Assembly: GCF_010500815.1 (NCBI RefSeq)
Contig: NZ_JAAAMG010000004.1
Span: 1 to 50,090, forward strand
DNA from: Jiella pacifica
GTDB taxonomy: Bacteria > Pseudomonadota > Alphaproteobacteria > Rhizobiales > Rhizobiaceae
Direction: 5' to 3'
Length of the DNA stretch: 50,090 bases
Shown here: positions 33,530 through 36,218 of the stretch, piece by piece
Layout: every line of letters begins with the position of its first letter
How positions within the stretch are numbered: position 1 is the stretch's first letter
The notes under the pieces: model-generated
Database searches by the model: none
What the model was told of the DNA's origin: nothing
Seen by the model: only the letters and a program-made list of their open reading frames with translations
Program-made: the position numbers and the translations under genes

Positions 33530-34501
33530 ATGGCACCGAACCGCCCGTTTCCCGTCGATCCGATCCTCACCGGCTTCGCGATCGGCTACCGCAACCCGGC
33601 CTATGCCTTCATCGCCGACGACGTTCTGCCGCGCACCCCGGTGATGGGCGAGCGTTTCTCCTGGACCGAGTATCCGCTGGAGGAAGGCTTTAGGGTCGTC
33701 GACAACCGCGTCGGGCGCACCGGCCGGGTCAACCGGGTCGAGTTCACCGGCACCCGGCGCGATTCCTCGGTCGAGGATTTCGGCCTGGAAGCGCCAATTC
33801 CCAACTCCGACATCGATGCGGCGGAGAAGATGAAGGCGCAGGGCCTCGGCAACTTCGATCCGCGCCAGCGGGCGGTGATGGGGATAGAGGACTACAACCA
33901 GATCAACCGCGAGATCCGCGTTGCCAGCCTCGTCCAGAGCCCGGCGAGCTACCCGACCTCGCAGAAGATGGCGCTGTCGGGCACCGACCAGTTTTCCGAC
34001 TACGACAATTCAGATCCGATCGGCGTCATCAAGGACGTCATCGACTCCACCCTGGTCTTCCGGCCCAACCAGGTGACGATGGGCCATCGCGACTGGACCA
34101 TCCTCTCCTCGCATCCCAAGCTGATCAACGCCGTGAAGGGTGGGCTCACCACCGAGGGCATGATCACCCGCCAGCAGTTCGCCGATCTCTTCGAGCTGAA
34201 GAAAGTGCTGGTCGGCGAAGCCTATATGGACGCCGCGAAGTTCGGCCACGCCGCCGACATCCAGCGGGTCTGGGGCGGCAACATGGTCTTCCAGTTCGTG
34301 AACCCCTCTGCCGACGTCAATGCCGGCACGATCACCCACGGCTTCACGGCGACCTACGGCACAAAGATCTCCGGTTCGATGCCCGATCCGAACGTCGGCC
34401 TCGAAGGCGGCGAGACGGTGCGGTCGGGCGAGCGGATCAAGGAGCTGATCGTCGCGCCGGGCGTGAGCTTCCTCCTCCAGGACGTCGTCGCTCCGGCCTG
34501 A
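33530..34501 (+). CDS. major capsid protein
   Basis: A 323-residue protein at the standard major-head position. FPVDPILTGFAIGYRNPAYA at the start and ERFSWTEYPLEEGFRVVDNR are typical of a capsid family in siphoviruses and Mu-like phages. TMGHRDWTILSSHPKLINAV and FADLFELKKVLVGEAY belong to the A domain of an HK97-type fold. It is not the classic Mu gpT sequence. It follows a 47-bp leader. Confidence 0.82.
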   Translation: MAPNRPFPVDPILTGFAIGYRNPAYAFIADDVLPRTPVMGERFSWTEYPLEEGFRVVDNRVGRTGRVNRVEFTGTRRDSSVEDFGLEAPIPNSDIDAAEKMKAQGLGNFDPRQRAVMGIEDYNQINREIRVASLVQSPASYPTSQKMALSGTDQFSDYDNSDPIGVIKDVIDSTLVFRPNQVTMGHRDWTILSSHPKLINAVKGGLTTEGMITRQQFADLFELKKVLVGEAYMDAAKFGHAADIQRVWGGNMVFQFVNPSADVNAGTITHGFTATYGTKISGSMPDPNVGLEGGETVRSGERIKELIVAPGVSFLLQDVVAPA

Positions 34502-34543: not shown

Positions 34544-35104
34544 ATGGCGAAAGACACGACCAAACCCCGCGGCACGGACAGCACGCCGCCTGCCGCTTCC
34601 GGCGCCGCACCGACCACGCTGGACGCGGCTGCGACCGCGGCCGCTGCAGCCGAAGCTGCACAGGAGAGCGGCGCGATGAAGGTGACGAGCGAAGCGGCGA
34701 CGCAGCCGGTTCTGGAGACGGTGCAGACCTCGACGTCGCCGGATGGCGAACCGCGCTCGGCCGAGATAGAGCCGCAGATGCCGCGCTCGGCTGCGTTCCG
34801 GGCCCGAACCGCCGGATCGGTCTTCGATCCCGGCTTTCCGGGAAGCGGACGCTCGACCTACGCCGGGACGTTGCCGGCGCGAACCCGGGTGCTGCCGGGC
34901 GGCGAACGCATCGCGATCACCGCCGTCGCGCCGGATACCGAGACCCGCGAGTTTACCGCGACGATCCGCATCCTGAAATCGAAGACGCTCTACGAGCCCG
35001 GCGCCATGGTGCCGCTCACCCGGCGTGACTTCGAAGCCAAGCGCTCGCACGGCTCGGTCGTCGAGCGGTTCTTCGAGGACGGCCTGGAGGTCGCGGCCGA
35101 ATAA
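34544..35104 (+). CDS. hypothetical head-region protein (gp35 position)
   Basis: A 186-residue protein. The first 80 residues are Ala/Thr/Glu-rich and probably disordered. The second half (TRVLPGGERIAITAVAPDTE, then FTATIRILKSKTLYEPGAMV and PLTRRDFEAKRSHGSVVERF) is a small folded domain that recalls gp35-like proteins of Mu-type phages. Function unknown. Its ATG at 34544 is in a leader with TTCGAAAAGG. It is the last gene before the structured gap and the acyl carrier cassette. Confidence 0.65.
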   Translation: MAKDTTKPRGTDSTPPAASGAAPTTLDAAATAAAAAEAAQESGAMKVTSEAATQPVLETVQTSTSPDGEPRSAEIEPQMPRSAAFRARTAGSVFDPGFPGSGRSTYAGTLPARTRVLPGGERIAITAVAPDTETREFTATIRILKSKTLYEPGAMVPLTRRDFEAKRSHGSVVERFFEDGLEVAAE

Positions 35105-35116
35105 TCGTCGTCGGAA

Positions 35117-35347
35117 CGGTGGGGCTCGTCCCGCCGGCGATCGGCGCGGCCCGATATCAAGAGGGCCGCGCCACTGCAATACCAGCGGGCCCCGGCCCCC
35201 ATGCTGGCGGTCGTGCCGGACGAGCAGCGCCAATGCTGCCGGCGCGCCAGCGGACGGGGAAGGCCCCGAGCGGACCCACAGGCCACGCAGGCGCCTGCCG
35301 CATCCCTTCGAGGTCCGGGGCTCGGAGGATCCTCAATCAGGAGCCCC
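35117..35347 (+). ncRNA. hairpin-rich non-coding leader before the acyl carrier gene (candidate structured RNA)
   Basis: In 231 nt I can draw: CGGTGGG/CCCGCCG (35117-35136, one GU pair); GGCGCGGCCC/GGGCCGCGCC, ten perfect pairs (35143-35172); CCAGC/GCTGG (35182-35207); GCCG-GCAGC/GCTGC-CGGC with a 5-nt bulge (35215-35243); CGGGG-AAGG-CCCCG (35255-35268); CGGACC/GGTCCG (35271-35317) enclosing the palindrome GCAGGCGCCTGC; and GGGGCTC/GAGCCCC (35317-35347), which covers part of the next ribosome site. There is no T-run, so no ordinary terminator. High GC favours chance stems, so the call is tentative. Confidence 0.45.
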
Positions 35348-35350
35348 AAC

Positions 35351-35659
35351 GTGACCAGCCCCGCAACTCCAATACTCACATCCTCCGCCAACGTGGCTCC
35401 GGCCGAGATCCGCGCGACCGTCGCCGACAAGGTGCGGTCCGTCATCGTCGACTGCCTCGGCGTGGCGGCGTTCGAGGTCACCGAAGGGGCGTCGCTTGCC
35501 GAGGATCTCGGCGCCGACAGCCTCGACATGGTCGAGATCGCGCTCGAGCTGGAGTCGGAGTTCGGCGTCACCCTCGACGACGAGACGGTCGACCAGGTGT
35601 CGATCGTCAAGGATTTCGTCGAGGCAGTCACATCCTGCCTGGCAAGGCGCGCAGCATGA
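35351..35659 (+). CDS. phage-borne acyl carrier protein
   Basis: A 102-residue acidic protein starting with GTG, AGGAG 7 bp upstream. After a 15-residue unstructured start it is a complete four-helix carrier protein: IRATVADKVRSVIVDCLGVA, then EGASLAEDLGADSLDMVEIA with the phosphopantetheine serine at residue 57, and LELESEFGVTLDDETVDQVS. The sequence is close to fatty-acid type AcpP, not to polyketide carriers, but it differs in the N-terminal extension and the Ala/Arg-rich end. It lies among virion genes, so it is probably made late. Holo-ACP formation would need the host AcpS. The role is unknown: lipid modification of a virion part or interference with host lipid metabolism are possibilities. 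Confidence 0.85.
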   Translation: MTSPATPILTSSANVAPAEIRATVADKVRSVIVDCLGVAAFEVTEGASLAEDLGADSLDMVEIALELESEFGVTLDDETVDQVSIVKDFVEAVTSCLARRAA

Positions 35660-35784
35660 GCGCCGGGTTCCGGATCTCGGCCGCGCTTGGCGGCACAGTT
35701 GCCATCCTGGCTCTCTCCTATGGCCTGGCACTCCTCGGCGAACCGAGCAGCGTCTGGCTGTGGCAGATGGCGGGGGCGCTGTGA
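35656..35784 (+). CDS. 42-residue single-span membrane protein coupled to the carrier protein
   Basis: The ATG at 35656 overlaps the carrier stop (ATGA) and the TGA overlaps the next ATG (TGATG), so its reading frame is locked into the operon. The protein has one span (ISAALGGTVAILALSYGLAL) with a short tail ending WLWQMAGAL. It is too short for a known enzyme. A function together with the acyl carrier protein at the membrane is attractive but only inferred. Confidence 0.6.
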   Translation: MSAGFRISAALGGTVAILALSYGLALLGEPSSVWLWQMAGAL

Positions 35785-36218
35785 TGGAGGATTTCGCGAC
35801 CAAGCAGGATCTGATCGACCGGTTCGGGCAGACCGAACTCGTCCAGCTCACCGACCGCACCAACCGGCCGCCGACGACGGTCGACGACACGACGGTGTCC
35901 CAAGCGCTCGGCGATGCCTCGGCGTTGGCGTCGGGCTATGTCGGCAAGATCTACCAGCTGCCATTCGCGGAGGTTCCGCCGGCGCTGGTGAAGTCGGTGG
36001 CCGACATCGCCCGCTATTATTTGCACGGCAGACGCGCTGAAAAGGATGGCGAGGTCGAGCGCGCCTACAAGGAAGCCGTCGGCTGGCTGAAGGACATCGC
36101 CCGGGGCGTGGTGCAGCTCGACGTCGGCGGTGTGCCGCCGGCGCAGCCCGAGGGCGGCTCTGTCCAGATCTCTGGGCCGCAGCGGCGGTTTTCCCGCGAC
36201 ACGCTGAGGGGCATGTGA
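35784..36218 (+). CDS. DUF1320 family protein (gp36-like)
   Basis: A 144-residue head-tail connector-type protein with the DUF1320 signature: DFATKQDLIDRFGQTELVQL, then VSQALGDASALASGYVGKIY and VADIARYYLHGRRAEKDGEV. In Mu-like phages this gene follows the capsid and gp35 genes. Here the acyl carrier cassette lies between gp35 and gp36, so the cassette looks inserted into an otherwise standard order. Confidence 0.88.
   Translation: MEDFATKQDLIDRFGQTELVQLTDRTNRPPTTVDDTTVSQALGDASALASGYVGKIYQLPFAEVPPALVKSVADIARYYLHGRRAEKDGEVERAYKEAVGWLKDIARGVVQLDVGGVPPAQPEGGSVQISGPQRRFSRDTLRGM

What the first reader, a model, noticed from the sequence alone, without database searches (positions are those of the whole stretch)
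35351..35784. Acyl carrier protein plus 42-residue membrane protein inserted in the head-tail module of a Mu-like phage
A full-length carrier protein with the GADSLD phosphopantetheine site lies between the gp35-position gene and DUF1320 (gp36), two genes normally adjacent. It is coupled by ATGA to a single-span mini-protein, which is coupled by TGATG to gp36, so it is expressed with virion genes. Carrier proteins are not part of any known tail or head assembly pathway I can name. Possible roles: lipid or acyl modification of a virion protein, feeding acyl chains to a membrane step, sequestering the host acyl pool or AcpS late in infection. All roles are inference.
Basis: partly seen in the sequence, partly recalled or inferred. 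Interest (0 to 1): 0.85.

Follow-up and report, generated by a model that had tools for sequence, protein, structure and literature searches.

The report
Acyl carrier protein in phage anti-defence slot
A bacterial virus carries a genuine acyl carrier protein gene wedged among its head and tail genes, at the spot where some related viruses keep genes that disarm bacterial immunity, which makes it a testable candidate for a new kind of counter-defence protein.

Summary
Window 35351-35659 encodes a full-length type-II acyl carrier protein (ACP) with an intact DSL serine site. It is ATGA-coupled to a 42-residue hydrophobic protein, which is TGATG-coupled to the Mu gp36-like gene. All 5 gp36 loci found in the genus carry an ACP before gp36. 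A wider survey (195 distinct gp36 stretches) found 8 ACPs; all 8 lie in the gap before gp36 and keep the serine. The mini-protein follows only 3 of 8.

The gap is an accessory-gene slot. Other phages carry Acb2/Tad1-hairpin proteins there (12 of 195; anti-CBASS/anti-Thoeris sponge family), tRNA-Met genes or small hydrophobic proteins; 176 of 195 hold neither ACP nor sponge. In one phage (three contigs) sponge, ACP and gp36 form one coupled row. RcapMu and RcWaterboi hold an Acb2-like gene at this site.

Best reading: not a virion-assembly gene but a late accessory protein, probably holo-ACP made by host AcpS, most likely counter-defence or host takeover (inferred from location). The target is unknown. 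Phage ACPs as such are known; I found no paper tying them to this site.

The parts
35351..35659 (+). Acyl carrier protein, 102 aa, GTG start, GADSLD phosphopantetheine site
   Evidence: ACPs in the same gap in 8 distinct phages including this one
35656..35784 (+). 42-aa hydrophobic mini-protein (probable single span), ATGA overlap with the ACP
   Evidence: follows the ACP in 3 of 8 ACP phages
35784..36218 (+). Mu gp36-like (DUF1320) head-tail adaptor, TGATG overlap with the mini-protein; right border of the slot
   Evidence: PF07030 3.7e-34, PHROG 195 head-tail adaptor 1.7e-44
34544..35104 (+). gp35-position protein, no Pfam or PHROG match; left border of the slot
   Evidence: tblastn matches before the ACP in the four related prophages
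35105..35350 (+). Leader without a convincing gene; aligned in the five prophages, preceded by a tRNA-Met gene in Jiella endophytica (L055)
35143..35172 (+). Perfect 10-bp GC stem-loop in the leader, both arms identical in five of five
   Evidence: z -3.8 for the window copy
33530..34501 (+). Major head protein by position; no Pfam match
   Evidence: gene order as in RcapMu

Best explanation
The gap before gp36 is an accessory-gene slot in the late operon of Mu-like phages. This phage fills it with its own ACP. SHOWN: ACP sequence and predicted fold, conserved serine, overlap with the next gene, recurrence in this gap, and sharing of the gap (once within one coupled row) with Acb2/Tad1-hairpin proteins. 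INFERRED: the protein is made late with capsid and protease, loaded with 4'-phosphopantetheine by host AcpS, and as holo- or acyl-ACP engages an ACP-dependent host process so as to blunt an abortive defence or stress response set off late in infection (for example membrane-lipid damage or its repair, or an ACP-sensing regulator). It is thus most likely a counter-defence or host-takeover protein, not a virion part. The target is not identified.
For: In 195 representative gp36 loci (650,134 bp up, 684,431 bp down; parts of phage genomes, not whole ones) all 8 ACP hits and all 13 Acb2/Tad1-hairpin hits (12 loci) end within 421 bp before gp36 on its strand, and no further profile match was found in that DNA; a rough uniform-placement estimate is 8e-5 if only three lineages are independent. 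PF24729 Acb2_Tad1_hairpin matches the three slot genes tested: L064 (1.5e-18), L080 (6.7e-21), L294 (2e-14); L064 matches PDB p26 at 4.5e-13. In L293/L294/L295 hairpin, ACP and gp36 overlap in one row. RcapMu44 and RcWaterboi gene 42 match the L064 protein (8e-6, 6e-7) and directly precede the gp36 relative. The ACP stop overlaps the next start in 8 of 8 (five onto gp36, three onto the mini-protein). AcpS is present in the host genome. Reviews say that a prohead protease interacts with a CBASS sensor (PMC12409349, passage) and that capsid mutants escape CBASS, without direct evidence that capsid activates it (PMC10286901, passage); head genes lie just upstream of the slot here.
Against: Guilt by location only; no experiment. 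176 of 195 loci have neither ACP nor hairpin profile match, and the gap also holds tRNAs and small hydrophobic proteins of unknown role, so not every occupant is anti-defence. The L294 hairpin matches PDB p26 only weakly (E 0.026). I know of no defence that targets ACP, and a paper search gave a listing of 13 papers with no evident link (listing only). A CBASS cyclase (PF18144) matched in 1 of 10 genus genomes, not in the window's host. ACP dN/dS is higher than that of gp36 and AcpP-like acidity and fold are kept, as expected of a metabolic ACP too.
Confidence: 0.45

Rival explanations
1. Auxiliary metabolic gene: the phage ACP tops up host fatty-acid or phospholipid synthesis late in infection.
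For: Canonical acidic ACP; AcpS gene in the host; other phage ACPs are annotated as auxiliary metabolic genes (PMC5463345 and PMC8224337, passages).
Against: No fatty-acid gene beside it: of the 80 best viral ACP loci 5 have FabF/FabG matches, the 4 with gp36 have none. 42% identity to host AcpP over the matched part and on its own branch. Does not explain the site shared with sponge genes.
Confidence: 0.27
2. Acyl donor for modification of a phage or membrane protein, with the coupled mini-protein as membrane partner.
For: ACP and mini-protein are coupled in 3 of 8 phages, and a different small hydrophobic ORF overlaps the ACP start in L164; in viral contigs the mini-protein was found only beside the ACP (2 loci).
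Against: Mini-protein absent in 5 of 8; no acyltransferase recognised among the 26 distinct window ORFs scanned with Pfam, though 12 of them had no match at E up to 0.001 and other window ORFs were not scanned; small hydrophobic slot proteins occur without an ACP.
Confidence: 0.1
3. ACP mimic that binds a host ACP partner (for example the Rsh/SpoT regulator, recalled as ACP-binding) as host takeover unrelated to immunity.
For: Conserved helix II and serine, diverged flanks; coupled to head-tail genes.
Against: No partner evidence; a pure mimic would not need the serine, which is invariant in 8 of 8.
Confidence: 0.12
4. Hitch-hiking gene with no benefit, spread by recombination in a tolerant gap.
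For: Modular slot with many unrelated occupants; dN/dS higher than gp36.
Against: Open frame and serine kept through dS up to 0.90; stop-start overlap kept in 8 of 8; in remnant L076 the ACP frame is intact.
Confidence: 0.06

Closest known systems
Acb2 / Tad1 hairpin sponges (PF24729) before gp36 in Mu-like phages (RcapMu44, RcWaterboi gene 42, slot genes of L064, L080, L294)
   Same: Same gap and strand, similar size, overlap with the next gene; once adjacent to the ACP in one coupled row
   Different: Different family and chemistry: sponges bind nucleotide signals (PMC10286901, passage); this is a phosphopantetheine carrier. Not a member of that family
Phage-encoded ACPs (PHROG 5934; Erythrobacter phage R6L ORF32, Vibrio phage R16F ORF117, Rhodobacteraceae prophage acpP)
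   Same: ACP in a phage, function unclear (passages of PMC5463345, PMC10152775 and PMC8224337)
   Different: Contexts vary: 80 neighbours of other viral ACPs gave 45 Pfam families, the 25 listed matching one member each; here the site is the gap before gp36
Host AcpP (between fabG and fabF, L002)
   Same: Sequence family, acidity, DSL site
   Different: 42% identity over the matched part; the five genus-level phage copies form a separate branch

Membership tests
Type-II acyl carrier protein | PP-binding domain above the curated cut-off | tested here: met
   PF00550 42.6 bits against 20.8; NF002148 78.1 against 71
Type-II acyl carrier protein | Invariant DSL serine and acidic character | tested here: met
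   8 of 8 slot ACPs keep DSL; pI 4.05-4.26 in the 7 computed
Type-II acyl carrier protein | Four-helix bundle fold | tested here: met
   Predicted model, pLDDT 82.6; best PDB fold matches are ACPs
Type-II acyl carrier protein | Conversion to the holo form by AcpS | not testable with these tools
   AcpS family matched in 3 of 4 host genomes incl. G000, not in MAG G008
AcpP equivalog (TIGR00517) | Score above the equivalog cut-off | tested here: not met
   63.1 bits against 70.45
Acb2/Tad1 hairpin sponge | PF24729 match | tested here: not met
   P0001 matches PF00550 only
Anti-defence gene of the pre-gp36 slot | Location shared with a known anti-defence family | tested here: met
Anti-defence gene of the pre-gp36 slot | Inhibits a defence system | not testable with these tools
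   no experiment; no literature link seen (listing only)

The most novel reading that the evidence does not exclude
The slot ACPs are a new class of phage anti-defence protein: a phosphopantetheine carrier, made together with capsid and protease, that blocks or repairs a late abortive defence by capturing, donating or buffering acyl groups, in parallel with (and once coupled to) nucleotide-signal sponges.
Probability: 0.3. Interest if true: 0.88.

Novelty: new variant of a known kind. Interest (0 to 1): 0.64.

Why it matters
Phage ACPs have been listed as auxiliary metabolic genes with unclear function. In this phage group they were found only in the gap that some relatives use for immune sponges, which turns the function question into a direct test. 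It also marks the gap before gp36 as a place to look for further counter-defence genes in Mu-like phages, including several uncharacterised small hydrophobic proteins.

Tried and rejected
Obligate ACP + mini-protein module: rejected, mini-protein in 3 of 8. Recent capture of host acpP: unlikely, host AcpP copies form their own tight branch and the five genus-level phage ACPs another (99/92). Several independent captures of ACP into the slot: not shown; a single clade of 7 slot ACPs is not rejected (p 0.47); the L293-L295 ACP was not in that tree. Conserved neighbour of phage ACPs in general: none seen among 80 of 97 neighbours scanned. CBASS as the specific target: weak, PF18144 in 1 of 10 genus genomes, G009, beside an E2 and a phospholipase. 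Terminator reading of the 35143-35172 stem-loop: no T-run. Hairpin over the ACP ribosome-binding site: folds no better than shuffles by a clear margin (z -1.74 to 0.06 in four). Single-sequence scan of viral contigs with P0001 confirmed no relative; the alignment did.

Rows dropped and limits: the survey keeps only loci where a gp36 profile matched at E up to 1e-6 (277 loci, collapsed to 195 by identical matched gp36 stretch, 192 with 300 bp upstream; a broken gp36 can be counted by a piece). A weak further gp36 match in the window's own genome (G000:C19, E 4.2e-4) was not examined for an ACP. The viral scans kept the best 80 of 264 and 80 of 288 relatives. The hairpin profile was built from slot sequences and may miss distant members elsewhere; the first count with a three-sequence profile was 8, the second 12. 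The small-hydrophobic-protein count (19 of 127 loci, not deduplicated) used a cut-off of 2.0 that this window's own mini-protein (1.92) does not reach. Papers: whether the place of Acb2 in Mu-like phages is already described was not checked beyond the searches named in the report.

Full report
OBSERVATION. The ACP is 35351-35659, matches PF00550, passes NCBIfam's ACP subfamily model NF002148 but not the equivalog TIGR00517, and its AlphaFold2 model (mean pLDDT 82.6) finds ACPs, including ACPs in complex with AcpS, as its nearest solved folds. The 42-residue protein has one hydrophobic stretch (mean 1.92 over 19 residues). Its start overlaps the ACP stop (ATGA) and its stop overlaps the gp36 start (TGATG). 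The host genome has its own acpP between fabG and fabF (gene names by my reading of the ORFs).

PHAGE. Around it lies a Mu-like prophage: ParB-like protein, Mu transposase, AAA ATPase, DnaA-like HTH protein, DUF3164, GemA, Mor-like, gp27, terminase, protein F, gp36, tail terminator, tail tube (Pfam). Gene order from head protein to gp36 is that of Rhodobacter phage RcapMu. No acyl-handling enzyme was recognised among 26 ORFs scanned, 12 of which had no Pfam match at E up to 0.001.

RELATIVES. Of 151 related genomes searched with this gp36, 14 have a match. Among the 10 genomes of the window's genus in that search, gp36 matched in 4 genomes at 5 places, and all 5 have an ACP before it: the window; the MAG Fulvimarina sp. 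NAT173; Aurantimonas sp. 22II-16-19i, twice; and Jiella endophytica CBS5Q-3. A sixth, weak match (G000:C19, E 4.2e-4) appeared with the alignment and was not examined. The mini-protein is present in three of the five.

SURVEY. gp36 queries brought in 3 viral loci, 44 genome loci and 80 + 80 partly overlapping viral loci, besides loci of the genome search. After profile matching there were 277 loci and 195 distinct gp36 stretches, 192 with 300 bp upstream. Eight have an ACP in the gap: the five above, a decayed Mu remnant in Aureimonas sp. Leaf324 (L076), a metagenomic phage (L164) and a second one on three contigs (L293, L294, L295). All eight keep the serine. Among one representative locus for each of the 195, no further ACP profile match was found in the 1.33 Mb held; these are stretches around gp36, not whole phages.

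THE SLOT. The same gap holds Acb2/Tad1-hairpin proteins in 12 of 195, again with no match elsewhere in the held DNA. Pfam names the family for the three I tested; the L064 protein matches PDB p26 at 4.5e-13, the L294 protein only at 0.026. That p26 is Acb2 of Pseudomonas phage PaMx33 is recalled. RcapMu and RcWaterboi have an Acb2-like gene directly before the gp36 relative. A Pseudomonas Beetrevirus has an Acb2-like gene two genes after a head-protein-sized gene; I did not verify its gp36. tRNA-Met genes occur before gp36 in 5 of 60 loci scanned (four in the gap, the fifth, L134, about 900 bp upstream), one of them together with the ACP (Jiella endophytica). Small hydrophobic proteins at a strict cut-off occur in 19 of 127 loci. 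Combinations seen: ACP + mini-protein, hydrophobic ORF + ACP, hairpin + ACP, tRNA + ACP, tRNA + hairpin, hairpin + small hydrophobic protein. 176 of 195 have neither ACP nor hairpin match.

DESCENT AND SELECTION. Five genus-level phage ACPs form one branch (99/92) apart from host AcpP; L164 sits with other viral ACPs (97/87); L076 is unresolved; the tree has few columns and its bootstrap had not settled. One origin for 7 slot ACPs is not rejected (p 0.47). Pairwise dN/dS: ACP 0.29-0.73, mini-protein 0.35-0.57, gp36 (4 sequences) 0.23-0.32.

WHAT PHAGE ACPs DO ELSEWHERE. 30 of 50,697 phage records have a tblastn match at E up to 1e-3, many of them unannotated records. Of the 80 viral-contig ACP loci kept out of 287, 4 have gp36 (these phages), 5 have FabF/FabG matches, 71 neither. 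80 of 97 neighbour ORFs scanned gave 45 families; the 25 listed, ranked by member count, each match one neighbour, one of them Tad2-like. So no general partner was seen; the fixed site belongs to this group.

MECHANISM. Shown: an ACP, in an accessory slot, overlapping its downstream neighbour, serine invariant, sharing the slot with immune-sponge relatives. Inferred: loading by AcpS (family matched in the host), late presence with capsid and protease, and counter-defence. A review passage says a phage prohead protease interacts with a CBASS sensor (PMC12409349); another says capsid mutants escape CBASS, without direct evidence of activation (PMC10286901). That would give a reason for keeping counter-defence genes in this operon. 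One ACP-carrying host (G009) has cyclase + E2 + phospholipase CBASS genes, but the window's host has no PF18144 match. A membrane-lipid target is therefore only an idea.

NOVELTY. Phage ACPs are known (passages of PMC5463345, PMC10152775, PMC11924767 and PMC8224337). I saw no paper tying an ACP to this slot or to defence in the searches (listings only, save for the papers named in this report); the library lacks most subscription journals.

The number of window ORFs scanned was corrected to 26 (12 without a match), the weak sixth gp36 match and the weak p26 match of L294 were added, and the bench test that would have put the gene into a phage was replaced by plasmid expression.

Noticed in passing
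window 35143-35172: Perfect 10-bp GC stem-loop between the gp35-position gene and the ACP, arms identical in five of five related prophages, no T-run after it.
   Followed up: partly
L055:3387-3460 (also L063, L064, L110, L134): tRNA-Met (CAT) genes inside or before the same gap in Mu-like phages; 5 of 60 loci scanned.
   Followed up: partly
L293/L294/L295, about 450 bp before gp36: Acb2/Tad1-hairpin protein overlapping an ACP start, the ACP itself overlapping gp36.
   Followed up: yes
L063, L068, L104, L110, L112, L116, L125, L134, L164, L165, L166, L168: Several seemingly unrelated families of 50-100 aa hydrophobic proteins in the gap before gp36, some with a tryptophan-rich end; roles unknown.
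   Followed up: partly
L397 (Jiella endophytica, G009): CBASS genes: cyclase, E2-like protein and phospholipase effector, next to ORFs that look like Tn7-type transposition genes (my reading).
   Followed up: partly
L076: Decayed Mu prophage: transposase-like fragment shortly before an intact ACP frame, and a gp36 matched only over residues 4-93.
   Followed up: no
G000:C19:35020-35310 (L392): Weak second gp36-like match in the window's own genome (E 4.2e-4).
   Followed up: no
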